DNA of 64,000 nucleotides from Sacculina carcini (Eukaryota; Arthropoda; Thecostraca; Sacculinidae): NCBI GenBank assembly GCA_916048095.2, contig OU696575.1, forward strand, positions 6,896,001 to 6,960,000, written 5' to 3'. The position numbers were made by a program, and so were the translations under genes. This document shows positions 28,946 through 54,656 of this stretch, piece by piece. Within the stretch, counting starts at the first letter, position 1. Every line of letters begins with the position of its first letter. The notes under the pieces were generated by a model. It was not told the origin of the DNA. It did not search any database and saw only the letters and a list, made by a program, of their open reading frames with translations.

Positions 28946-31664
28946 TCAGAGCGAAGCGTAAGGGGTAAGAGAGTGAGAGTCATGATCAAAAGATTTATCA
29001 AAGAGATGATTGCGCAGAGAAGAGGAAAACGATGATAAGGATGTGGAGGAGATAACATGGGAGGGAAGAGAGTTGTACAAACGTGGAGCATAGAAAGGGA
29101 AGGATTCACTAGACCAGGTAGATTCATTGAGGGCTCGTGGACAGGATAAAGGAAGAGCATGACGGGAAAGAAAGTTATTAGAGAGTGTAAGAAGCTGCGA
29201 GAGGTATGTAGGTTGCCGAGGGTCATGCAAAAGTTTATAAACAAGACAGCAAATTTTAAAGTGGATGCGAGGGATGATCGGAAGCCATCGAAGATTGTAG
29301 AGATAGGGTGAGGTATGACGAAAGTGGGAAGGAGAAAACACGAAACGACAAGATTTATTAATGACATGTTGCAGGATTTTCAGAGAGGAACGAGGTACAT
29401 GGAAATATAAAGAATTGCAGTAGTTGATTCTTGAAAATATGAAACAATGAATCAGTTTAATAGCTGAGGGACGGTCGAGAAAAGGGTGGATAGGATATAG
29501 CGAACGTAGAATGAGATGACAAGTGCGAGCAACAGCAGAAATATTTGCAGAAAAAGAAAGTGACGAATCCAGAATGACTCCGAGATCACGAACACTTTGA
29601 GATGGGGGTAAAGGGAGCAGTGGAGGTGTTAAGCGAGGAGGATGTAGAATGAAGAATTATGATTTGGAAGTGTTAAGAAGGAGACTGCGAGAGGCACACC
29701 AGGAAGAAATATCAGAGATAATGTCTGATAAGAACGAAGCATGGGGAAGGGAAGAGGAATAATTATTTGTATATCGTCTGCGTAGACGTGGAACTGGACA
29801 GAAGAGCGATGGAGAATAGGACATAGAGAAGACATGTACAGATTGAATAGAAGCGGGGCTAGAATAGAACCTTGTGGCACACCGGAAAGTAGAGGAGTTT
29901 GCTTAGAAGTAGTGGAATTGAATTGCACCGAGTAGGAACGATCAGTAAGATAAGAATATAGAGAGAGCGCTGAAGAGGACACACCAAGAAAGGAGAGATC
30001 TCTGATTAAAATTGAATGGTCAACTAAGTCAAAGGCTGCTGACAGATCAAGGATAAGCAGAGCAGATTTACCGAATGAAAAATGAGAAAAAACAGTAGTA
30101 GTAACGGAGGTTAGGACAGATTCAGTAGAGTGAGCAGACTTGAAACCCGATTGGAAGGGGTCAAGGGATTTGTTGAAGAATGGCGCAAGTTGAGAATACA
30201 TAACAGACTCGAGGAGTTTAGAGGGAAAGTTGAGTAGAGAAATAGGACGGTAACTGCTACATAGCGAGGGATCGAGGGAATGTTTTTTTAGTATCGGAAG
30301 GATGACTGCATGCTTCTCAGGAAAAAATACACCATGTAGGAAAGAGCTATAGATTAAATGCAATATAAAGGGAACCAGGAGCAAAATAGAGTTTGATAGG
30401 GCACGAAAATGTATGGGGTCCGCAGGGGAAAGCGAAATGTTTGTTGTAGAAATGATAGTGATGATATCAGGAAGCTCTAGATGTGAAAAGTGAGTAAAAT
30501 GATCGTGCGATTTAGTGTGAGTCAAGCGGGAGTTAGGAGAAAAAATACTAGAAATGGCAATTTGGATGTTATCGGATAAAAATACAGCAAGGTCGGAGGC
30601 AGAGAGAGAAGACGAAAGGCTTGGGTTTTGCAGGCCACTCAATGAGTTAAGCGAGGACCACAGAGATTTAGGACAGCGAGAGAGTGACGATAATTGAGAT
30701 TTGAAGTAGGATTGTTTAGCAGAGTATAGGGCAGATATATACAAAGAGCGAGATGAGCAGAAGGATGACAACGTAGCAGTAGTGCAACAGCGTTTCCACA
30801 CACGCTCATGGTAGCGTTGGGCGCGTTTGAGAGAGATTATTTCGCGATTACACCAAGGAGGAAGATTGGAGCGATTGGAGGATGAGCATAGTGGAAATAT
30901 GGCTTCGTTGATAGAAGACATAACCTTGAAAAAAGAAGAGTACAATTGGGTAGGGGGAAGTGAGTGAAATTGAGTTGAGGGAAGCATGTGAGAGAATAAA
31001 GTTGAGAAGAGGTGAGGGTCAAATTTTTTGTCATTTCTGTACGATCTGGGGGGAGAAATACGTGGTTTGGGAAAGGGAAGATTGAAAGTGAGGAGACTGT
31101 GGTCAGAAGTAATGGTATCTGGGGGAAATACAAGAACATCCGGAGGGGTTAGGTCGGGTGCTAGAACTGGAGATGGAAAAAGAGCAAGATCAAGGGTGTG
31201 ACCGGAGATGTGAGTCGGTGAAGTAACAGGCGAGTATAGACCGTAAGTTTGGATCATAGACAGGAATTGAGAGCAATAAGGATTTCGGGAAGGTTGATCG
31301 ACCCAGAAATTAAAATCTCCAACTATAAGAAAACGACTGGAGAAGGACGCGAGAAGCACATCAAGTAACATAGGAAATTCGGTAAGAAATAATGACGTAG
31401 TTCCCGGATGATTGTGGCGATATATTATAACAAAGCAAAATTTCGAGCAGGATGGAATATTGAGAGAAAGAGCGAGGTATTCAAGGGATAAGCATGGGGG
31501 ACCAAAGTTGGGTATAGTAGATAAGACCCAGGATTTATTAAATATACATCCAACACCACCACCGGAAGCTTTGGTGTTTGAGCGGGAGGAGTGAATAAAG
31601 TTAAAATCAGCAGGGAGATGGGCAGTAAAAGACGTAACATCAGAATCAAGTAACCAGGTCTCAA
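28946..31664 (-). pseudogene. CR1-like LINE ORF2 (endonuclease-RT)
   Basis: Endonuclease: ETWLLDSDVTSF and SNTKASGGGVGCIFN (31500-31664), then after a frame change FLIVGDFNFWVD, HTLDLALF and TSDHSLL (from 31371). RT follows in the same frame to 29629: SLCSSYRPISLLNFPSKLLE, LILDLSAAFDLVDHSILI, SGVPQGSILAPLLFNLYMS and an intact YADD. After another frame change the C-terminus (YNLRWLPIIPRIHFKICCLV, then FYAPRLYNSLP) ends at 28946. Few breaks, so a fairly young copy; the clade CR1/Rex-like is judged from the RWLPI-RI-FKI block. Confidence 0.88.
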
Positions 31665-31815
31665 CGAGGAAGAATAAAGAAAGATTATGAGAGGAAATCA
31701 GGTGTGAGAGTATAGGAGTCTTATACCGACATGACCTAGTATTTAGAAAACCAAGAGTTAAAAATCTAGTGTTAGAGGAGGAACGGATGGGCGAGGCAAG
31801 AGGGAGCGAAGGTAG

Positions 31816-37625: not shown

Positions 37626-40600
37626 TTACTGATATCGCCGATTCCTGATCACGACCCGACCACGTCTTGTAACATCTGGAATAAATGAGAGAGCATCCCT
37701 CTGATCCACGTCTGCATGGTGTTCCTCGCGGTGAACTTCCGTCGCTTGATCAGGAATGTTTCGCTTGCCCCTGGTCCTTTCAGGATCTTCGCTCTGCATA
37801 GTTGCATTCCGATCTTCAGCTTCGCAAGGACTTCCAGCCGACGGTTGAAGAGACACATCACTCTCAGATGCTTCCGGGTGTTCGTGCGAGAGTAAAGAGC
37901 GCTCACTGGTATCTGGTGAAGGAGCTAGATCTCCAGTTGACACGGTTGATTGACGACCATCAGGAAAACGAACTCTGGCATAATTTGGAGTTGCTGAAAT
38001 GATCTCAACCCGTTCTACAAGTGGATCAGACTTGCGTTGGCGTACAAACTTTCGAAGCAGTGCCGGGCCTCCTTGCAGCCATTCTGGTATGGTATAGCCG
38101 TGGCCTGACCTTCTTTGAAAAGCAAACAGTCTTTCGTGAGGAGTCGCGTTGGTAGCGGTACAGAGGAGCGAGCGAATGGCGTGCAGGGCCATATCGAGTA
38201 CTTCTTGCCAGTGACTGTCATCAAGTCCGCTAGATCTTAAAGCTAGTTGAATCGCTTTCCATACTATTCCATTGATGCGTTCACATTGTCCATTTCCACT
38301 TGGGTGATACGGTGTAGAGTGAGTAATAATAATACCATGCTTCCACAAAAATTCCTTTACTTCCGATGACACGAATTGCGCCCCGCGATCGCTATGCATC
38401 GATTCAGGACATCCGCAGAGCGCAAACAGTTTCTGAAGGCAATGTATAACCGTCTTAGTAGACATGTCCTCACATGGAAAAACAAACGGATAGCGTGAAT
38501 ACTCATCTACAATCACAAGGAGATATCGCATTCTGTTTCTTGACGGTTTTGGTCCCACAAAATCCATAGAAAGTCTTTCAAAAGGTGATCGTGATTGGAT
38601 AAGACGGCCAGCAGGAGGCTTGTAGAATCTTGGTTTTAATTCTGCACAAACGTGGCACTGGGCGCACACTCGCTTAACATCTTCCATAGAAAACGGTAAG
38701 TTCTTCTGACGCACAAAATGATAAAGCCTTGCTGTGCCAGGATGACAGAGCGCTATATGGAGATCTTTGAGGGACACTGTGCATGTTGCTGCACAAGAGC
38801 GAGACAGCGCATCAGCTGGTGCGTTCAGAGTTCCTGGCCTGTATACTATATCATATGAGTAATTCGCCAGTTCCAATCTCCACCTCAACAACTTATCATT
38901 TTTTATTCGATTTGGCGCTCTGGTGTTGAACATATACGAGGCAGCTTGCTGATCCGTAACAATAGTAAAATGTCTACCTAGCAGCAAATCACGCCATTTA
39001 CGGACTGATTCAACAATAGCTGCAGCCTCACGTTCCACTGCTGAATGCGATCGCTCAGCTTGAGTCAGAGTCCTGGAGAAATACGCGACCGGACGTCCAT
39101 TCTGCGATAAACAAGCAGCTACCGCCATCGCAGATGCATCTGTTTCCACTCTGAATGGCACATCGTCCTCAATTGCTGCCACCGATGCTCGGCATATCTC
39201 ATCCTTGATGTTCTGAAATCTCATTCTGAGCTGGCTCACCATTGGGAATGATTTTACATTTAAGAGTGGAGATATACGATCTGAGAAATTTTCAACCCAT
39301 GGAGAATAGTAGGAAAACAGCCCCAATGCCCGCTTGAGCGACTTACTGCACGACGGGATGGGAAGATTTCTCAATGGTGTGAGTCGTTCTGGATCAGGAC
39401 TGATGGTTCCATTGTCGAGCATATGGCCGAGAAACCTTAACTTTGTAATTCCGTACTCACATTTGTCGTCATTCAGCTGGAGATTGAGTCGACGAGCCAC
39501 ATCATTGAAAGCATCCATATTCTTTTCAAGTTCTTCTTTTGTCGCACCGCCAATAACAATGTCGTCGATGTACACGAATGCTCCTTTCAAGTTGTTCTCA
39601 GTAATGATATTGTGCATAATACGCTGGAATACGGCTACCGAATTGGTGAGGCCAAAAGGCAACCGGGTAAATTCATAGAGACTGCCATCTGCTTCAAATG
39701 CAGTGAACTTTCTTTCATCTGCTCGTATTGGGCATTGATGATACGCTGACTTGAGGTCAAGTTTGCTGAAAATTCTAAATTTTGAGAGTTGTCGTATGAT
39801 GTCTGATATTTTGGGTATCGGAAACGCATCAAGGTGAGTGAAACGATTAATGGTGCTGGAATAATCGATTACCATGCGGCGTTTCTGTCTTTCATTGTGA
39901 GTAACGAGTGCTTGTGCGCGCCACGGCGAAGTAGATTTCACAATCACACCCTCTTTCAGTAACTTTTCCACTTCTGCTCGAATAAACTGCCGGTCAGGAA
40001 CAGAGTATTGTCTGCCTCTGGTTGCAATGGGTTTGCAATCATCAGATAAGTTGGTGAAAAGTGGTGGTGGCTCGATCTTCATGTGAGCAGCACCACATAC
40101 ATGCAAAGTCGGTGAATCTCCGCTGAAGACAAACTCAACAGTGCCATGAAGCCTCATGAACTCTTGCCCCAGAATCATTTGCGTGCATAAATCCGTCATC
40201 ACAGAAAACCGCACATCCTGATATATTCTTTCATTGACTGATACAGATGAGACGCACTCCCCTTTTGTGTGACATCTTAGTCGCGAAGAAGCCATTGTCA
40301 CCGCTTCGCATGATGGTGCCACTTTCATGCCTAGGCTTTTTGCAACATCATCTCTGATAAAATTGTGGGTGCTGCCGCTGTCTACCATTGCTTTGACATC
40401 AGTGTCTTCGATTTTGACGTTCACCACTGAACACTGCGTTCGAGAAGGCAATACAGCACTAGCTGCAGTGAAAGCAGCTTGCAATTTCGCATTCGATGGT
40501 CTCTCTTTGACATTTGAACGACATACAGTTGAAAAATGTCCTCTTTTGCCACACAAGTAGCATTCAACGTTTCTGGCTGGACAGGCATAACGAGGATGAT

Positions 40601-41279
40601 TAAGCCGTCCGCAGAACTGGCATTTAGCTTGTCGCTTCACTGGTTGGTGGCCAATCGCCGCACATTGCTCGCTGATGTCGATAGAAGAATGACTTTCAGA
40701 TTGTTTGCCTTGCTCGACCGTCACTTGAGCTACAACAGCAGAACTGTTATAAGCGGCGGCATTTTCCTGCGCCATCTCCAGGCTTCTGGCGGTTGCTACG
40801 GCGTCATCTAGCGCGAGTTCATACTTCTCCAGTAATCTTTGACGTATACTCGTAGAAGCAAGACCCGTAATGAATGCGTCCCTCACAGCTTGTTCTGTAT
40901 GTTCTGATGCAGAAACGGCTTCAAAGAAACAATCTTTTGCTAGATTTTTCAGACTCTGTACAAAATTATCAACCGATTCACCCTCGTTTTGTTTTCTGGT
41001 AGCCAGCAAATGGCGGGCGAAAACCTTATTCGCTGGTTTCACGTACGCTGATCGAAGAATTTTGATCGCGCCTTCGAATGTCGAGCACTGAGAAAACAGT
41101 GCATACACCCTTGGTGATACCAAATTCGTTAACACACTGAGTTTGTTCGGTGGATTGCTCGGATTTGATATTGTTAACGATTCTATGCAATTCATCAGCG
41201 TTCGTTCCCAATGATTCCATTCGTCCGCAGTCGTTTCTGGGAGCCCTTCGAAACGCGTCGGTTTTAGTATATGATCCAT
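37626..41279 (-). CDS. Gypsy element 2 gag-pol polyprotein
   Basis: A single 1217-residue frame without stops. gag-like helical region at 1-190; two CCHC knuckles at 220-253 (CQFCGRLNHPRYAC, CYLCGKRGHFSTVC). Aspartic protease motif VDSGSTHNF at 299-307 and its end ILGQEF. RT with DLKSAYHQ, RLPFGLTNS and YIDD at 570-573. RNase H begins VETDASAMAVAA and includes EREAAAIVES and VTDQQA. Integrase has an HHCC-like CAQCHVCAE, SMDFVG, HSDRGAQFVS and GQCERING, so the DDE triad is complete, then a C-terminal tail. Fusion of gag and pol in one frame with self-priming is the Tf1/sushi-like organisation. It looks competent at protein level, but the damaged 5' LTR would prevent normal transcription. Confidence 0.93.
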   Translation of the reverse strand: MDHILKPTRFEGLPETTADEWNHWERTLMNCIESLTISNPSNPPNKLSVLTNLVSPRVYALFSQCSTFEGAIKILRSAYVKPANKVFARHLLATRKQNEGESVDNFVQSLKNLAKDCFFEAVSASEHTEQAVRDAFITGLASTSIRQRLLEKYELALDDAVATARSLEMAQENAAAYNSSAVVAQVTVEQGKQSESHSSIDISEQCAAIGHQPVKRQAKCQFCGRLNHPRYACPARNVECYLCGKRGHFSTVCRSNVKERPSNAKLQAAFTAASAVLPSRTQCSVVNVKIEDTDVKAMVDSGSTHNFIRDDVAKSLGMKVAPSCEAVTMASSRLRCHTKGECVSSVSVNERIYQDVRFSVMTDLCTQMILGQEFMRLHGTVEFVFSGDSPTLHVCGAAHMKIEPPPLFTNLSDDCKPIATRGRQYSVPDRQFIRAEVEKLLKEGVIVKSTSPWRAQALVTHNERQKRRMVIDYSSTINRFTHLDAFPIPKISDIIRQLSKFRIFSKLDLKSAYHQCPIRADERKFTAFEADGSLYEFTRLPFGLTNSVAVFQRIMHNIITENNLKGAFVYIDDIVIGGATKEELEKNMDAFNDVARRLNLQLNDDKCEYGITKLRFLGHMLDNGTISPDPERLTPLRNLPIPSCSKSLKRALGLFSYYSPWVENFSDRISPLLNVKSFPMVSQLRMRFQNIKDEICRASVAAIEDDVPFRVETDASAMAVAACLSQNGRPVAYFSRTLTQAERSHSAVEREAAAIVESVRKWRDLLLGRHFTIVTDQQAASYMFNTRAPNRIKNDKLLRWRLELANYSYDIVYRPGTLNAPADALSRSCAATCTVSLKDLHIALCHPGTARLYHFVRQKNLPFSMEDVKRVCAQCHVCAELKPRFYKPPAGRLIQSRSPFERLSMDFVGPKPSRNRMRYLLVIVDEYSRYPFVFPCEDMSTKTVIHCLQKLFALCGCPESMHSDRGAQFVSSEVKEFLWKHGIIITHSTPYHPSGNGQCERINGIVWKAIQLALRSSGLDDSHWQEVLDMALHAIRSLLCTATNATPHERLFAFQRRSGHGYTIPEWLQGGPALLRKFVRQRKSDPLVERVEIISATPNYARVRFPDGRQSTVSTGDLAPSPDTSERSLLSHEHPEASESDVSLQPSAGSPCEAEDRNATMQSEDPERTRGKRNIPDQATEVHREEHHADVDQRDALSFIPDVTRRGRVVIRNRRYQ

Positions 41280-41282
41280 AAT

Positions 41283-41875
41283 GTTTAGTTGAATAAATCC
41301 TTAAGTAGAAGGTCGAGGGTTTTCGGAGCGCGACAATTTATTCAACTAAACATTATGGATCATATACTAAAACCGACGCGTTTCGAAGGGCTCCCAGAAA
41401 CGACTGCGGACGAATGGAATCATTGGGAACGAACGCTGATGAATTGCATAGAATCGTTAACAATATCAAATCCGAGCAATCCACCGAACAAACTCAGTGT
41501 GTTAACGAATTTGGTATCACCAAGGGTGTATGCACTGTTTTCTCAGTGCTCGACATTCGAAGGCGCGATCAAAATTCTTCGATCAGCGTACGTGAAACCA
41601 GCGAATAAGGTTTTCGCCCGCCATTTGCTGGCTACCAGAAAACAAAACGAGGGTGAATCGGTTGATAATTTTGTACAGAGTCTGAAAAATCTAGCAAAAG
41701 ATTGTTTCTTTGAAGCCGTTTCTGCATCAGAACATACAGAACAAGCTGTGAGGGACGCATTCATTACGGGTCTTGCTTCTACGAGTATACGTCAAAGATT
41801 ACTGGAGAAGTATGAACTCGCGCTAGATGACGCCGTAGCAGCCGCCAGAAGCCTGGAGATGGCGCAGGAAAATGC
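41283..41875. repeat. Inverted duplication of LTR end and gag in gypsy element 2
   Basis: Two arms of about 540 bp, one on the minus strand (41298 down to about 40758, the real gag start) and one on the plus strand (41335-41875), nearly identical and separated by a 36-bp LTR-end fragment (41299-41334). The turn-around occurs exactly at the TTTAGTTGAATAAA / TTTATTCAACTAAA self-complementary pair. The plus-strand open frame (41289-41942) is this copy and not a gene. Confidence 0.93.
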
Positions 41876-44814: not shown

Positions 44815-46225
44815 TAGCATTAAAACCCGCCCGTTGTGCGGAGGAATTCATAAAATGGAATTAATATTTATAAAAATTGATATTCATAAAGATATTCCAA
44901 AAAAAAAAAAAATTCATAAGTGTGTCCAAGTGTGAATATTTTTATTTTTATTTTGACATGATATTTTCCCTCAACCCGCCTCATATATAAACCCACCCAT
45001 TGTGCGGAATAATTCAGAACACAAACAAGTAACAAACAATAAATATTCTAGCATGTAAACCCGCCCGTCGTGCGAAACAGTTCATACTATTAAATTTATA
45101 TTCAATTCATAAGATAAAAGCAATATGAATTAAAAAGAGTGGAGTAAACCCATAAAAAAGTCTAAATTTCTATATTTTCATTATTATTTTCACAAAATAA
45201 TTTGCCAAGACCGCCTCATATTTATACATGCCCGTCGTGCTGAATAATGCAGAAATCAGACACGAAACAATGAAAAATGACTACACTTTTTCATCATAAT
45301 GTTTCCAAAATATTTTTATAACTTAACATCACCGTCTAGCATTGAAACCCGCCAGTTGTGCGGAGCAATTCATAAAATGAAATTCATATTTAATTCATAA
45401 ACATATTGCAAATTAAAAAAGAAAACAGATATACTAATTAAAATCTTACTCAATTGAAAAGTCTAAATTTAATTATTTTTATTTTTATTTTGACAACATT
45501 CTTTCCTTTACCCGCCTCATATTAAACCCGTCCGTCGTGCTGAACAATTCATAAAATAAAATTCATATTCAATTCATAGAATAAATTGAATACAAATAAA
45601 AAAGCCAAAAATTTAACCTGTATATACGTTCAACAATAAAAACTCTAAATTTGAATACTATAAATTTAAATTTGAAAAAATATGATCCCTCAATCCGCCT
45701 CATATTTGAACCTGCCCGTCGTGCGGATTAATTCAGAACACAAACACGTAACAAACAATGAAAATTCTAGCATGTAAGCCCGCCCGTCGTGCGGAACAAT
45801 TCATACTATTAAATTTGTATTCAATTCATAAAATAAAATAAATATGAACTAATAAAGAAAAGAGTAAAACCATAAAGAAATTTCCTATTTAAACCTGCCC
45901 GTCGTGCTGAATACTTCAGAACTCTGACACAAAACAATGAAAAATGACTAAACTTTTTTATCATAATGTTTTCAAAATATATTTATAACTTAACATCGCC
46001 ATCTAGCATTAAAACCCGCCCGTTGTGCAGAACAATTAATAAAGTAAAATAAATATTGAATTAATAAAAAACGATTAGAAATTTTGAAAGAAAAATAAAC
46101 CCATAAAAAGTCTTAACCAATAGAAAAGTCTAAATATGACTGTTTTTATTTTGGATGTGGCAAACTATTTTCCCTCGAACAGCCTCGAATTTAAACCCGC
46201 CCGTCGTGCGGAACTATTAATTAAG
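44814..46225 (-). repeat. Array of Helitron 3'-terminal hairpin motifs
   Basis: At least eleven degenerate copies of an ACCCGCCCGTCGTGCGGAA-like motif at 44820-46215, five of them preceded by CTAGCAT (44814, about 45049, 45337, 45767, 46002), that is, on the minus strand a hairpin followed by ATGCTAG. They alternate in a higher-order pattern of roughly 100-190 bp spacing. The same array, shorter, is in Helitron 1 (23018-23880). Confidence 0.8.
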
Positions 46226-46453
46226 TAGACGTGCAGCTTTGTCTGGCCACAAACCAGATCCAAAGCTGCATACCCCCAATTCGGCCTTGATATCCTAAAC
46301 CAACTACACATTATGGACAGATTACATAAGAGGGTAAAGAAGAAGCAAAATGATGAAATAATTTGGGACCAGAAGATACACATAGCAATAAGTTATAATG
46401 CTTATATTGTCTAGTACCTCACACACAAGCTCAACCCGACACAAACTCAACCC
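46226..46453 (-). other. Helitron 3' UTR with stem-loop
   Basis: Contains a strong stem-loop at about 46228-46271, with GCAGCTTTG pairing with CAAAGCTGC and CTGG with CCAG. No coding similarity. Confidence 0.5.
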
Positions 46454-47660
46454 CTAGTTAGTAATCATTTCTTGACGTAGAAGAGGAGGTACATTCTTCG
46501 TCCTCACGCTTGACTCGCTGATGGGGGACACGCGCACGTCGTCGAGCTTGACCCACTTCCCGCTTGCCTCGGAATAACAGTCGGCGGTGTAGTGGCCTGC
46601 GGACACCCCCGATCCAAGATGGTTGACGACGCCGCTGAGCCTGTACTCCTTGTAGATGTTCTTGTCCCCTCCGTAGCCTGTCACAAAGGGTGCGATCTCC
46701 AAGGAACCCGTGGGGAAGTCCACAAAGGGGTCCGCCTTCTGGAATGCGCCGTTGAACCTCTTGATGCTGATGATGAGGACGGGAGGGAGGCGGACGATCT
46801 GCAGCCGCATCGTAGAGGTGCAGGTGAAGCATTTCGGGCACATCCTGTCTTCCAGTGACTCGACCTCCAGGTACTTGTTGAGACAGTCGGCAAGTGATCT
46901 TCCAGCCAATGGGACCGAGATGCTGGAGAAGTACTCGTATTTGATGATGACGTCATGGCACGTGTGGCAGTGGACAGTGGACATCTGCTGGCCGTTGAAC
47001 ATGTTCCACATCAGAGGACTGTTGGAACCCGTCGTGAAGAGGTCCCATACCCTGTCAACATCGGTTTCGCCTTCTATGGAGTACGGAAGGGGGTCTGAGA
47101 GTCTGAGCTCAATCTCTAGCTGGTCCAGCAGTAACATCAGGAATTCTTGGGCGTCCTCTTGCGATTCACCGTCGAATTCTTCACGGTAGAACATGGCTTC
47201 TTGTAAGAGACCTGCAGGTGATACGGTTTCCCCGTCGTTGCGCAGCAACTTTTCAATGAGGGCTGCAAATGTGCCGGCGATGGTGTTCTCCTTCTCGCGA
47301 CAGCCCTGCACCAGCTGCCAGGAGAAGGCCCCAAGACTGGCCAAACACTGTATGGTGCTGTTGACGTAGCAGTTGTTGATCATGTTTACCAGTCTGACGG
47401 GGCGAGCATCTGCGGTGGTCTGCTTTTCGGTGGTGGTCTCCTCTTCCATGGCAGCTTGGTCTTCTGCACTGGTGACTGTAACCGGAGAGTCAACATCATC
47501 CACCTCCATTGCCGTCTCTTCCGGTGTCTCGATTGCAGGCTCGTTTCCCAGGGTGATCTGCTCCAGCTTCTTCATCCTCTCCTCTTCCTCGACCCTCTCC
47601 TTGAGCGCCTTGGACTTGGAGATCTGCTCAAAACGTTCAAAGTTAGGGAAGGGACGTTCA
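46454..47660 (-). pseudogene. Helitron C-terminal ubiquitin-specific protease (USP, C19) domain
   Basis: Continuous frame. It opens with the usual Helitron helicase end (FERFEQISKSKALKERVEEE), then an acidic linker, then a complete USP: Cys box LVNMINNCYVNSTIQCLASL (catalytic Cys about 47371), GESQEDAQEFLMLLLDQLE, two CxxC pairs (CHTCHD, CPKCFTC) of the USP zinc ribbon, LPPVLIISIKRF, and the His box GHYTADCYSEASGKWVKLDD (His about 46594, Asp in LDD). The Cys-His-Asp triad is intact. USPs remove ubiquitin from proteins; in a transposon the role is unknown, possibly protecting the transposase from degradation. The domain itself has no stop; it is called a pseudogene because the upstream frame is broken. 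Known Helitron-linked proteases are OTU or Ulp1 types, so this combination is unusual. Confidence 0.88.
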
Positions 47661-49600
47661 AAGTTGCAGCGACAGACCCTTGAACGTTTTGACCCTTGTG
47701 GCTCCAACGAGAAGAAGGCCGAGGGCAAACTCTCTCCTCCCAGGGTTCAGGATGACCTTGTCGAGGGTGGCTCCCTGCAGCTTGTGGATGGAGAGGGTAT
47801 ATCCGAGGATGACGGGAAACATGGTCCTCGTGCAGTCGACCTTGTTGGAGTACCAGTTCCTGGAGACGGGGCAGATCGGTACAGCCTGCTTGATGCCCTT
47901 GTACCACGGTCCCTTGTAGGCCTCAAAGATCGCGATGATGGCGACGGGGAGCTGAGGAGGCTTCTTGCCTGGCGCGTAGATGATGGAGTGGACCTGGCCC
48001 ACTGCTCCGTTGGTCAGCCCCGCTGCGGTTCACAGATTGGAGGTGAGACGGAAGATGGTGTTGCAGCAGAGGATGATCTTGCTGGGCAGTCCAGACAGGC
48101 GGTCCGCTCCCTCCTTGGCTGCCTCTAGCTTGGGATGGCTGTCTGCCTTGATCAGGGCAATGGGCTGCTTGTTGTCGCAAACCTTCCTCGTGTTGTGCTC
48201 GATCATGTCCTTGGTGCAGGCGCAAGCAAGGACTCCATTGTCGAGGAAGCTCTGCCTCTCATCCGTGGGGAGATCGTCGAGTGAACGGGACCTCCAGCGG
48301 TTCCAGTCCTGGAGTTTGAACTTTCCCTCTCCGAGGCGGTGAAGCTCCTCTCTGAACTGCTTCTGCTCGTCCCCGTCCTGCCGCTGGATCTTCTCAAAGA
48401 TGATGGTCTTCTTGAAGCGGAGGTAGAGGCTGTGCGCAGGACCGGTCATCTCCCTGTGCTTGGCCTTCTTGTCCTTGGAGGGGTTGTGGTAGAGGGGATA
48501 GTCCAAGACGGGCGTAGCTGCTTCCAGTCCCCGATGAGGAGGACGGACATTCCCCCAAATGGCTCGTCGCAATGGAGAGGGCGCAGCTCTCTCAGCCTCT
48601 GGTTGATGAAGAAGAACATCTTGAGCCCGATCATGCTCTTCTCGTCGATGATGATAAGGACTACGTTCTTGAGGTCCTGCTGCAGGGGCGAGGAAGTTCT
48701 TCCCGACAGGCAGAAGGAAGAGGCCGTGCAGAGTTTCTCCCCCGATCTGGAATGCAGCTGTTCCCGACGGAGCTGCGGACCTGACAAAGTCCTTGGGCAG
48801 GGAGGTGGACTTGGCATACCTCCGGACGGCGTTGAGGAAGTAGCTCTTCCCTGTCCCTGCTGGCCCCGAGATGTTGAGTAGCAGTGGTTCCGTGCTCCCA
48901 TGTCGAAGGCCACGCGCTGATTGGCGTTGAACTGGTCCGGAAGCGGTCCCTCTTCGTCATCTTCTTCTGGCATGGCCGTTCCGTCCTTGTCATCCTTGAG
49001 CTTCTTTGGCAGGCTCTTCAGATCCTCTCCCGTAAGGCCCAGCTCTCTCGAATCCCTCTGCCAGTCGTGGTCGTGGGCGTCGCTTTGGAACTGGTTCTTT
49101 TTGTAGTCGTCCTCAGGTTCCTCTCTGTAGACCAGTTCCTGCTCCTCTTGGCGTATCTCTCCAGCGAACGTCTGGTACTGGTCCTGCTCGTAGACCTCGG
49201 GAGGAGTCATCGGATGGTGCAGGAGCTCGGTCTCCTGCGCTGGTTCATCATCTGCCCCGAACTGGGTCTCCTTTTCCCCCAGAACCCTCTGGCTCTGCTT
49301 GAACTCTTCCTTGACAAGCTTGTGGCAGTTGGGGCCATTGACAAAATTTTCAACCTCCTCCTCGAGGACTTTCTTTTCGAGGGCCTGAATGACGCTGAGG
49401 GTGGTTCCGGCCTTGAAGACGAGGAGGATCGCTCGCAGGAAAATGAGGTACCTATCCCCCTGTTCGGCCTTGTGTTTGTTGGGGACGTAGGAGAAGTTGG
49501 GTGTGATGTGGGGGACCTTCTCCTCTCCGTGGATCATCCAGTTCCTCTTGTAGTTGGAGACAAACTCGTAGAGGGTAATGTCGCGGGGATTGAACTGCAT
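47661..49600 (-). pseudogene. Helitron Pif1-type helicase domain
   Basis: Superfamily 1B helicase motifs in order: DQFNANQRVAFDMG, Walker A GPAGTGKSYFL (about 48865, in a different frame from the flanks), Walker B VLIIIDEKSMIG, LLIGDWKQLRP (motif III), VLACACTKDMIEHN and the C-terminal GYTLSIHKLQGATLDKVIL. Frame changes near 48895, between 48860 and 48660, near 48500 and near 47680, plus an in-frame TGA at about 48028-48030 (a CGA-to-TGA type change), break it. The N-terminal 49000-49600 part carries MQFNPRDITLYEFVSNYKRN, typical of the region linking Rep and helicase. In Helitrons this helicase unwinds DNA for rolling-circle transfer. Confidence 0.9.
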
Positions 49601-50736
49601 CTTCCCTCCTCGTAGTCCTTGACCATCCTCTTGAAGTTGTCGTTCTCCTCACGGTCCCAGTACCTTGTGGCCATGTTCTCCTCGGCCAGGTCCTTGTCTT
49701 TGGTTTCCGGGGCGGTGAGCTTCCTCGTACCCATGACGTTGACGGAGACGATCTTCCTGCTGAACTCGACAAAGTCCAGGCCGTTGAGGATGTGGGCGCA
49801 CTCCTGCTTGGAGAGGTCATGCTCTCCGACCGTCTTCATCAGGATCTTCTGGAATGCCTTCCTGGTGGAGTCTCCTTCGTCTGAGTCTTCGATGACGGCT
49901 GCACAGATGGCACTGAAGGGCTTGGAGTCGGGCTCGTCCTTCATCATGTACTTGAGGAGGTACTCGATGGCCTGCTTGTAGGAGGTGACGCCCCTCCCCT
50001 CGATGTTCGCTCTCCAGATGACCAGCAGCTCCGTAATGTGGTGGACAATTTTCGGATGGTTCCTGAGGTACACCAGCAGTCCCTTGACGAATTCTCCTCC
50101 CTCGTCTGCCTCTCCCTCGATGCGCCTGGCTCTCAACCGAAGCTGCGTCTCCTCGTCCTGGACATCCTTGAACCCAAGCAGCCGCATAGGGAACTTGAAG
50201 CGGCACAGCTTGTTCGGTTCGTTGATGTTCTTCTCGTCCCTGCAGTAGCCGAGCCTGCACTGGTGGACCATGACCCTGTTGATCAGGAGCTCGTGGCAGT
50301 GCTTGTACTCGTAGGCTTCCTGGAGATCGTTGAGCTTCTGCCGTAGGACGTTCACTTGGGGCGTGTGGACGTCCTGCTCGGGCCAGGTAGCAGGGTCAGG
50401 GTTCGGATGGAGTGCAGAGATGCCGAGATACCCACAGTTGTGCCTCTTAATCTTCTCCCTCGCTTCCATGATGGCCCTGTCCTTGTCCTCGTGGCCCTCC
50501 TTGCCAGTCACTGCCTGCTTCGCATTCTCAAGGTCGTCATGAGAAGGCTTCTTCATGACGAGGAGGATGTGGGCGTGGATCGTTCCTCTTGCCTGCACCT
50601 CATAGCGAACAATGTAGTTCTCGGCTCCCATCTTGGACAGGACGAAGTCGAGCATCATCTTGACCCTGAGGTAGAAGTAGTAGTCCACGAGGTCGGTGTT
50701 GTCGTTGATGGCCTTGATCCGGAGCAGGTGGTCCTA
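49601..50736 (-). pseudogene. Helitron Rep (HUH endonuclease) domain
   Basis: YYFYLRVKMMLDFVLSK is followed by the HUH motif in EVQARGTIHAHILLV (about 50569-50602). The two-tyrosine motif is in YKQAIEYLLKYMMK, then ECAHILNGLDFVEFSRK and VSVNVMGTRKL, as in animal Helitrons. The domain nicks and joins single strands during rolling-circle transposition. It is joined in frame to the N-terminal part but separated from it by one TAG at 50734-50736; the frame is lost at about 49600 before the helicase part. Confidence 0.9.
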
Positions 50737-52582
50737 TGAGCTGGTGATGCAGCCCTGCTTCTCCTCCTCCGTCAGTCCGGCATAGACCGTCGTAGTGACG
50801 ACCCTCTTATTGAGGTACTTCTCCGAGCCAGGGAGGAGCCTGTGGAGATCGTCCCAATGGAGATCGGCTGCGGAGAATGTCTGAAAGAAGTTGAACATCT
50901 TGGTGTCATCGCTGTGGATCCTGATGAACTTGAGGAAGGAGACGGCCATGTCCGACTGGAACCTCATGTACTGCCTCGTTCCCGGGATTGGGATTCCGAA
51001 GTAGAGAAGCTTGTTCAGGACCTTCTTGTATCCCTCGTTGATGAGCTTCTGGAGATCGGCGAACACGAGGCCATCGGTGCAATTCCGGGCGAACACGTTT
51101 CCAAGTGTCAGGGCCTGGTGCCGTCGCAGTATGTTGGTGGCCACGAAGAGGAAGCAGTGGTGCTTGGCGAAGGCACGGTTGGTCCTCAGGAGATGCTTGA
51201 AGGAGTTCTTCTGCGACGGGTTCTTGTACTCTCTGGCCTTGGTGATGTCCCCTCTCCCGTCCGGGAAGAGGTCTGGGAAGGCCTTGCTGAAGTAACCGGT
51301 GATGAACTCCGAGGCAGGCTTCTTCGCCTTCTCCGGCCACTCGAGAAGTGGTGCCTCCTTCTGTGGTTTTTCCTGGCAGAGGGCATTCTGCATCTTCTCC
51401 ACCAGCGTGTTCCCAGGTAGAGGGACCATGACCGTCGACGACTCCTCCCTCGCCGACTCCTGGTTTGCAGCGGTGGCTCCTTCCGTAGGCATGTTGAGGA
51501 CCTCTGGGTCGACCTCAGGAGCATTCTGGATGATGTCGCCGTCCTCCGGGTACTGGTTGAGGTTTCCCTCAGAGATCTCGATATCCCTGTAGTCCTCGCT
51601 GTGGGCCTTGAGGTAGAGGAGAGCCTCGAGCAGATTCTTCCTGGAGACGTAGAAGGCCTTGTCGATGTTTGCGTCCTTGGGGTTCTTCAGCACGAGGATG
51701 GGGAGCTCCGATGGGATGCGAGGAAGCGATGTGGCAAGCTCTTTGATGTCCTGGAAGAAGCTGACGACATGCCCCTTGGTTGCCGTCCCGTGCCCCTTCT
51801 TGTAGACTGCGATCGAAGGGCAGATGATGGAGATGCAGTTCTTTTCGATCGGGCTCAGTCGTGTGAGGACCTCTGGCGTTGGTGACGGAGTCAGGTCGTT
51901 CTTGGCTGCAAAAATATTGGCCCTCTCTCCACGGCAGCTGCTGCAGACTCCCTTCTTGTTTATCTCCAGGCCGATGAACTCCTCCTGGCAGTTGTTGCAG
52001 CGGCTCCACTCGATGGCCTCCAGCTTGCTGAACATCTCCTTGCCGGCCTCTATCAAGGGATTGTTGTCGAACTGGTTGAAGCTGAAGTCGTCCCTGCTGA
52101 AGTGCTCCAGATACGTAGTGTGGAGACGGAGGAGGGTCTCTGCAGGATCCTCGTTGTCGTTGAGGTTGAGGAGATGCTCGAGATCCTCACCGAGGAGGCT
52201 CTCATCTGTTCGGCGTCGCTTCTTGGAGGTTCTCTCGTGCTCCTTTTGGCGCTTGTTGGCCTTAGCAATGCGATCCCTTTCCTGCTCCTGGGCTCGCAGG
52301 TTTGAATTGAGGTGTCTTTGTTGCATTGCAACCTGACTTTTCTGCACCTTCAGAAGCCAATGGCTGGGCGTCTTCTTTACATTGTGGCGCCTCTGGTTCT
52401 TTGCAATCCTGTCCCTTTCTCTTTCTTCATCAGCCTTGTCTTTGTCTTGGCGCCTTGCGCGGTTTGAGACCGTATTCGTTCCCCACTCGAGTTGCTTGTA
52501 CTGCAGATCCTTCCTCCTTTTGTTTTGCTGAGCGGGTCATGGCCAATGTCCTGCCAAGAGATGATTTCCCCTTCTTGGGCAT
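50737..52582 (-). pseudogene. Helitron N-terminal region with zinc finger
   Basis: ATG at 52582 (MPKKGKSSLGRTLAMTRSAK), a frame change near 52520, then a long basic, coiled-coil-like part (ERERDRIAKNQRR, QEQERDRIAKANKRQKEHER). A C2-C2 finger (CNNCQEEF, GVCSSCRGE) and the conserved region LPILVLKNPKDANIDKAFYV, GYFSKAFPDLFPDGRGDI and FARNCTDGLVF match the helitron-like N-terminal domain that precedes Rep. The first finger is of the type found before Rep in most animal Helitrons. Confidence 0.85.
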
Positions 52583-52799
52583 GATGAAGGATCAGTTGTA
52601 GGGCCTTCTCTTCGTCGTCGTCTGCAAGATGAGGTCAGGTCGCGGAGGTCAGGCGAGATTCCTGGAAAAAGATTGATAATTTTATTTCCTCTGTTGAATG
52701 AATGAACGAAAGTTATTCGATATTCACTTGATCGTTGACGGCTCCCACGGGATTGAAGGTTGAGGCTGAATCCGAGTCACTGGCCTTCTCGCCCTTGTC

Positions 52800-52965
52800 G
52801 ATCACGATCGGGATGAGGCCGAATCCGCGGTATGAGGCAGAATCCGCGGGATAAGGCCGAATCCGCGGAATGAGGCCGAATCCGCGGAATGAGGCCGAAT
52901 CCGCGGGATGAGGCCGACTCCGCGGTATCGGGATGAGGCTAAATCCGCGGGATGAGGCCGGCGGG
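52800..52965. repeat. 19-bp GC-rich minisatellite in Helitron 5' region
   Basis: About eight copies of GAATCCGCGG(A/G)ATGAGGCC with small changes, between the Helitron start codon and its proposed 5' end. Confidence 0.9.
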
Positions 52966-53015
52966 GGGAGATGACTGTCTCTTTATAATTTCTTTTGGTT
53001 CTTCCTTCTTCGAAG

Positions 53016-54258: not shown

Positions 54259-54656
54259 AAAAATCGGTCCAGTGGTTTAGGAAGAGATAGGGTAAACAAA
54301 CACAAATGACCTCAATGACCTTGAAAATAACCTTGGAGGTCAACAAAAGCTAGCCTATGACCTTCTTGCATCCATTTTACCCCTAGGGACCAAGTTTCAT
54401 CAAAATCGGTCCAGTGGTTTAGGAGGAGATAGGATAAACAGACACAAATGACCTCAATGACCTTGAAAATGACCTCGGAGGTCAACAAAACCTAGCCTAT
54501 GACCGTCTCGCATCCATTTCACCCCTAGGGACCAAGTTTCATCAAAATCGGTCTAGTGGTTTAGGAGTAGATACGATACAAACAGACATTTTTAATAAAT
54601 TTGCAATCAGTATAGGGCAAAAAAATACCATCAATTAGGCCCTTCGGGCCTAATTG
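54259..54656. repeat. 142-bp tandem repeat ending in a perfect hairpin
   Basis: About 2.4 copies of a 142-143-bp unit (starting AAAATCGGTCCAGTGGTTT at 54259, 54402 and 54544), with ATGACCTCAATGACCTTGAA and GGGACCAAGTTTCATC in each. At 54632-54656 an 11-bp stem CAATTAGGCCC closes over a TTC loop. Similar GTTTCATCAAAATCGG-type repeats are common in invertebrate genomes; the parent element is unknown to me. Confidence 0.75.

What the first reader, a model, noticed from the sequence alone, without database searches (positions are those of the whole stretch)
46454..52582. Helitron whose Rep-helicase protein continues into a ubiquitin-specific protease
The minus-strand Helitron frame reads zinc finger, HUH/Y2 Rep, Pif1-type helicase and then, after the usual helicase C-terminal helix, a USP with complete Cys-His-Asp triad and zinc-ribbon CxxC pairs. 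Proteases I know from Helitrons are OTU and Ulp1-like. A deubiquitinase could stabilise the transposase or act on host chromatin; the function is speculation. Intact USP motifs beside a broken helicase suggest the USP was under selection until recently.
Basis: partly seen in the sequence, partly recalled or inferred. Interest (0 to 1): 0.85.

Follow-up and report, generated by a model that had tools for sequence, protein, structure and literature searches.

The report
Helitron transposase fused to a deubiquitinase
A broken copy of an animal rolling-circle transposon encodes a replication protein whose end is a ubiquitin-removing enzyme of the USP class, and relatives predicted as whole joined proteins exist elsewhere, which suggests that some of these jumping genes carry their own tool against the cell's ubiquitin system.

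Summary
Window 46454-52582 (-) is one decayed Helitron coding region: DUF6570, HUH/Y2 Rep, PIF1 helicase, then a USP (Pfam UCH E 3.6e-47; top Foldseek hit USP8, TM 0.86). The helicase's C-terminal helix, linker and USP share one open frame. A Littorina saxatilis protein aligns through Rep, helicase and USP in one stretch (48%); a Nucella lapillus model begins the same USP. Their Rep-helicases form one clade with the window's (100/100). Other Helitrons carry a USP at the N-terminus (P0020, P0049, P0050) or, distantly, the C-terminus (P0040). Helitrons with OTU and active VTD deubiquitinases are published (PMC9741609); nine paper searches, several with capped lists, showed me none with a USP. 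I file it as a new variant: a further deubiquitinase class in Helitrons. Against: the window USP is no closer to Littorina's (34%) than to ordinary USP8s (29-34%), so two captures are possible; its intactness beside a broken helicase is unremarkable (chance 0.17); activity and substrate are unknown; the own genome could not be searched.

The parts
46454..52582 (-). Whole decayed coding region of the Helitron, start-like ATG at 52582 to stop at 46456-46454
52436..52582 (-). N-terminal piece in another frame, followed by a frame change
51556..51915 (-). DUF6570 (PF20209), behind a CxxC...CxxC zinc-finger-like stretch
   Evidence: E 5.3e-20; the finger read by eye in the window and in P0011
50560..51198 (-). 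Helitron_like_N (Rep), interrupted by an in-frame stop at 50736-50734; HUH motif HAH at 50577-50569
49939..49962 (-). Y2 motif YLLKYMMK of the Rep domain
47661..49609 (-). PIF1-type helicase spread over several frames, Walker A 48866-48843, in-frame stop 48032-48030
47420..47650 (-). Helicase C-terminal helix (FERFEQISKSKALKERVEEEERMKKLE) and acidic linker, in the USP's frame
   Evidence: same layout in P0011 and P0041
46457..47419 (-). USP (peptidase C19) domain: Cys 47371-47369, His 46594-46592, Asp 46543-46538, CxxC pairs 46969-46958 and 46840-46829
   Evidence: Pfam UCH 3.6e-47; PDB USP8 3.8e-38; invariant columns; model pLDDT 78, Foldseek top hit USP8 TM 0.86
46232..46270 (-). Strong hairpin behind the coding region, candidate Helitron 3' palindrome; no clear CTRR end seen
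   Evidence: z -4.45, 1 of 200 shuffles folds as well
52790..52985 (.). Tandem repeats of 19-nt period upstream of the coding region, possibly part of the element's 5' region
   Evidence: D3

Best explanation
This is a dead copy of a rolling-circle transposon (Helitron) lineage whose transposase reads zinc finger, DUF6570, HUH/Y2 Rep nuclease, PIF1 helicase, acidic linker, USP deubiquitinase. Shown: the anatomy, the shared frame of helicase helix, linker and USP, complete catalytic motifs, and relatives of the same layout. Inferred: in live copies the USP removes ubiquitin. Most likely it acts on the transposase itself and on proteins held beside it on single-stranded donor DNA, keeping the Rep-helicase from being extracted or degraded while it unwinds and transfers the strand (about 0.45). 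Next come histone or replication-clamp ubiquitin at donor and target sites (about 0.3), or something else. The USP was acquired at the root of the clade holding this element and the Littorina and Nucella elements, or twice at the same place; other Helitrons appear to have taken up USPs separately.
For: Domains and frames. One BLASTP alignment of the joined window protein to P0011 (Littorina saxatilis) runs 162-2031 at 48%, through helicase, linker and USP. Rep-helicase clade window+Littorina+two Nucella rows 100/100 (22 rows; SH-aLRT 100, 43 rows). P0041 (Nucella) runs past the linker into a USP start, and P0042 stops within that linker. N-terminal USP in P0020, P0049, P0050 with full-length UCH matches; C-terminal in the distant P0040 with a partial one. 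Cys, His and Asp/Asn boxes in those and P0011 (patterns partly fitted by eye). USP fold. High third-position GC in the USP (0.73) as in Rep-helicase (0.75-0.81), flanks 33-36% GC. Active VTD deubiquitinases in zebrafish Helitrons, with protection of transposition proteins suggested by the authors: PMC9741609.
Against: No activity, expression or transposition data, and the window copy is dead. The window USP is 34% identical to Littorina's and 29-34% to eleven non-Helitron USPs, while the Rep-helicases are 55% identical; free USP trees do not join the two (one clade not rejected, p-AU 0.367). Rep-helicase relatives P0012, P0014, P0015, P0016, P0043 and P0044 show no USP, though contig ends were not checked. 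The second zinc CxxC pair or both are missing in P0020, P0049, P0050 and P0040. Other copies in the own genome could not be sought. Element ends are not proven.
Confidence: 0.72

Rival explanations
1. Passenger capture: the Helitron picked up a host USP8-like gene piece, as Helitrons often do, and the USP has no role in transposition.
For: Helitrons capture host genes (recalled). Nearest solved relatives are USP8, USP15 and USP2. The USP is much more diverged than Rep-helicase (34% against 55%). Several Rep-helicase relatives lack it.
Against: Same place behind the same helix in window and Littorina, and begun in Nucella; catalytic and zinc residues kept on a long branch; single predicted fused proteins in other elements (their DNA not seen).
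Confidence: 0.15
2. Two or more independent captures at the C-terminus (window lineage and gastropod lineage) rather than one inherited fusion.
For: Window USP no closer to Littorina's (34%) than to non-Helitron USPs (29-34%). Free USP trees leave the two apart, though with open forks and a long window branch (1.8-2.3).
Against: Holding them together costs only 1.74 log-likelihood units, p-AU 0.367; the Rep-helicase clade is 100/100; same junction behind the same helix.
Confidence: 0.35
3. The USP works as a processing protease that frees itself or other parts of the Rep-helicase protein, as viral proteases do, rather than as a deubiquitinase of transposition factors.
For: It sits at the end behind a long acidic linker; many viral deubiquitinases also process polyproteins (PMC9741609 introduction, passage).
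Against: USPs are ubiquitin isopeptidases by nature (recalled). No ubiquitin-like cleavage site was searched for.
Confidence: 0.08
4. Assembly or gene-model join of two unrelated loci.
For: P0041's model drifts into a filament protein downstream, so models in this family can be chimeric. The window copy is broken, and read data are unknown.
Against: In the window, helix and USP share one open frame; P0011, P0020, P0049, P0050 and P0040 are each predicted as one protein.
Confidence: 0.03

Closest known systems
Helitron/Helentron elements with OTU and VTD (herpesvirus tegument-like) deubiquitinases, PMC9741609
   Same: Rolling-circle Rep-helicase protein carrying a deubiquitinase in the same ORF; the authors suggest it prevents degradation of proteins needed for transposition
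   Different: Other protease class (OTU, VTD against USP/C19). The paper's VTD hosts carry an AP-type endonuclease, absent here. In the three rows that I scanned for position the OTU or VTD lies N-terminal (P0024, P0027, P0033); here the USP is C-terminal
Helitron-type proteins without a recognised protease (P0012, P0014, P0015, P0016, P0043, P0044)
   Same: Same Rep-helicase; P0012, P0014, P0015 and P0016 are 45-47% identical to the window's
   Different: End 6-22 residues after the matched helicase region; no USP match. Whether contig ends cut them was not checked
Ginger1 with Ulp1/OTU, and a Trichomonas transposase_11 protein with peptidase C19 (PMC2836005, passages read)
   Same: Transposase proteins with ubiquitin or SUMO proteases; the Trichomonas case has a C19 domain
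   Different: Other transposase kinds, not rolling-circle elements
Cellular USP8 / USP2 / USP15 / USP21 catalytic domains
   Same: Fold, triad, zinc ribbon
   Different: Cellular proteins with other accessory domains; 27-31% identity for the first few structural hits

Membership tests
Helitron (Rep-helicase rolling-circle transposon) | HUH plus Y2 Rep motifs | tested here: met
   HAH and YLLKYMMK; Helitron_like_N, (split by an in-frame stop)
Helitron (Rep-helicase rolling-circle transposon) | PIF1-type helicase in the same protein | tested here: met
   PIF1 in two frames of the broken copy; in one protein in P0011
Helitron (Rep-helicase rolling-circle transposon) | 5' TC, 3' palindrome and CTRR, insertion between A and T | tested here: inconclusive
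   3' hairpin 46232-46270; no CTRR just after it and no 5' end recognised by eye; definition from a passage of PMC4067079
Helitron (Rep-helicase rolling-circle transposon) | Multiple copies in the genome | not tested
   The genome search did not answer in ten tries; no second copy within the window
Helentron | AP-type endonuclease fused behind the helicase | tested here: not met
   No PF03372 in the seven pieces scanned (E up to 1)
USP / peptidase C19 | Family profile, Cys-His-Asp triad, zinc ribbon | tested here: met
   (window Asp read; the pattern missed it)
USP / peptidase C19 | Deubiquitinating activity | not testable with these tools
   needs an assay
Helitron OTU or VTD deubiquitinase class | OTU (PF02338) or tegument-like (PF04843) domain | tested here: not met
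   one search finds neither in the seven pieces scanned

The most novel reading that the evidence does not exclude
Deubiquitination is a recurring need of animal Helitrons that interchangeable enzymes fill: USPs were recruited into Rep-helicase proteins at least three times (C-terminal in the window/gastropod clade, N-terminal in another group, C-terminal in a distant element), beside OTU, VTD and Ulp1, so the ubiquitin system is a general front between hosts and rolling-circle transposons.
Probability: 0.5. Interest if true: 0.75.

Novelty: new variant of a known kind. Interest (0 to 1): 0.6.

Why it matters
Why Helitrons carry deubiquitinases is an open question raised for OTU and VTD (PMC9741609, passages read). 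A further unrelated class on the same protein, at either end, makes convergence testable: if USP, OTU and VTD elements share substrates, host ubiquitination of the transposase or of its chromatin is a general brake on rolling-circle transposition. Elements with and without the USP (P0011 against P0012 and similar) give natural pairs for an assay.

Tried and rejected
USP-only search of the window domain: 10 hits among 3810 candidates, none with a Helitron domain in its Pfam list. P0011 was not among them, probably because candidates must share exact 5-residue words. So absence in that search means little.

USP trees to find the donor gene: unresolved, with open forks and long branches. One clade not rejected for window plus Littorina (p-AU 0.367), for all six Helitron USPs (0.238), or for five without P0040 (0.226). 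No donor claimed. Rows dropped: the Nucella fragment from all USP trees; P0010 and P0036 (long branches); the four other Helitron USPs as well. P0040 was left out of the Rep-helicase tree by the program, so its distant place rests on low similarity (33% over 7% of the query). For one search I chose 21 of the 43 Helitron-type proteins plus the window, under LG+G4 without the mixture model.

P0013's roughly 300-residue tail behind the helicase looked to me like a USPL1-type (C98) protease (motif recalled). Pfam and PDB sequences gave nothing meaningful, and a profile comparison with USPs (E 0.011) was matched by one of three shuffles (0.0088). Left unidentified.

P0052 matches the USP profile weakly (12 bits) and was not counted; that profile was built with the Helitron USPs in it, so their own matches prove nothing.

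Viral contigs with P0011 and P0020: no related locus. Solved-structure search with the Rep piece: nothing. The viral fold library returned mostly giant-virus USPs at the top, taken as shared fold only.

Recent selection from the lesion pattern: rejected as evidence (0.17). dN/dS: not run. On rereading I raised the two-capture rival from 0.25 to 0.35 because the window USP is no closer to Littorina's than to non-Helitron USPs.
Full report
Observation. On the minus strand of 46454-52582 the frames carry, in order, DUF6570, Helitron_like_N, PIF1 and UCH (peptidase C19) by Pfam. The frame read-out shows six frame changes and two in-frame stops (50736-50734 and 48032-48030) in the Rep-helicase part. 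The last ORF, 47746-46454, holds the helicase C-terminal helix, an acidic linker and the whole USP without a stop; the helicase core before about 47660 is one frame change away. HUH (HAH), Y2 and Walker A motifs are present. The USP Cys, His, Asp and four zinc cysteines are invariant in a 13-row alignment of the window, P0011 and eleven non-Helitron USPs, nine of which carry the USP8 N-terminal domain PF08969 in their Pfam lists and two of which are fungal. The modelled domain (pLDDT 78, pTM 0.80) has USP8 as top Foldseek hit by E-value (3n3k, E 1.1e-29, TM 0.86).

Is the intact USP special? Eight lesions fall in 4922 nt and none in the last 1204 nt; if lesions fall uniformly the chance of that is 0.17. 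Some lesions could be assembly errors; this was not tested.

Relatives. A whole-length search with the read-through protein returned 30 proteins, 28 of them Helitron-type by their Pfam lists. A second one, with P0011 residues 1050-1895, returned 375, of which 120 were listed; the other 255 I did not see. From the two lists I gathered 43 Helitron-type proteins. Six of these 43 carry UCH by Pfam: P0011 Littorina saxatilis (C-terminal, 1612-1889, full length of the profile), P0041 Nucella lapillus (C-terminal, only the start 1169-1204), P0020, P0049 and P0050 (N-terminal, nearly full length; P0049 also has a C-terminal Ulp1/C48), and P0040 (C-terminal, matched only over profile positions 198-254; its Cys half was read by eye). 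This share is biased, since both queries held a USP. P0042, 96% identical to P0041 over 1086 residues, stops inside the linker that P0041 carries on through, so it is a cut copy or model. DNA of these relatives was not seen.

The window protein and P0011 align in one stretch, 162-2031, at 48%. On a Rep-helicase tree of 22 rows (21 of the 43 plus the window), window, Littorina and the two Nucella rows form a clade with support 100/100. It meets P0016 and a five-row clade (P0012, P0013, P0014, P0015, P0043) in an open fork; of those five, four end soon after the helicase and P0013 has an unidentified tail. The quick tree of 43 rows also shows the four-row clade. Cys, His and Asp/Asn boxes were found in P0011, P0020, P0049, P0050 and P0040 (5 of 5) with patterns that I partly fitted by eye. 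The two zinc CxxC pairs were found only in the window and P0011; P0020 and P0050 show one CxxC, P0049 and P0040 none, so those USPs are more divergent.

One capture or more? Against a single inherited C-terminal USP: identity of the window USP to Littorina's is 34%, to the eleven others 29-34%, while Rep-helicases are 55% identical, and free USP trees do not join the two. For it: the clade is not rejected (p-AU 0.367), the junction is the same, the Rep-helicases are sisters. All six Helitron USPs as one clade are not rejected either (0.238). By position and Rep-helicase kinship I favour at least three recruitments in all, which is inference.

How it works. [quoted passage not shown] Chromatin or clamp ubiquitin comes second (about 0.3). 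None of this is shown here.

What is known. OTU in Helitrons or Helentrons (PMC2836005 and PMC4067079, passages read), VTD in Helitrons (PMC9741609), and peptidase C19 with an unrelated transposase in Trichomonas (PMC2836005) are in print. Nine searches of the paper library listed no paper whose title or abstract start shows a USP in a Helitron. Lists were partial (15 of 66; 15 of 16; 12 of 21; 12 of 89; 15 of 4115, mostly off the subject). bioRxiv and most subscription journals are not held, and Repbase was not searched. I read passages of three papers and no paper whole.

Limits. The organism is unknown; 7 of the 10 other long window ORFs scanned carry reverse transcriptase or integrase domains. 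The own genome could not be searched. Helitron ends are unproven: a strong hairpin lies about 184 nt behind the stop, without a clear CTRR.

Noticed in passing
P0049 (2525 aa): One Helitron-type protein carries both an N-terminal USP and a C-terminal Ulp1 (C48) protease, so two ubiquitin-type proteases in one predicted transposase.
   Followed up: partly
P0013 residues about 1630-1929: About 300 residues behind the helicase with no Pfam or meaningful solved-structure relative; motifs NSCPIDNFF and GTHFTS...WLFYDG look protease-like to me (recall), unproven.
   Followed up: partly
P0033 (Strongylocentrotus purpuratus): Tegument-like domain, OTU and endonuclease in one Helitron-type protein.
   Followed up: no
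window 44822-46212: Array of diverged repeats with a CCGCACGACGGGCGGG-like box directly behind the candidate 3' hairpin of the Helitron (D2, D5-D7, D9).
   Followed up: no
window 52790-52985: Tandem repeats with a 19-nt period just upstream of the Helitron start (D3).
   Followed up: no
window 37629-41300 (-): Uninterrupted 1224-residue retroelement frame with aspartic protease, reverse transcriptase, RNase H and integrase.
   Followed up: no
window 29632-31815 (-): Retroelement frame of non-LTR type with endonuclease and reverse transcriptase.
   Followed up: no
window 54260-54588: Tandem copies of a 142-nt repeat, two whole copies 94% alike and the start of a third (D8, D11).
   Followed up: no
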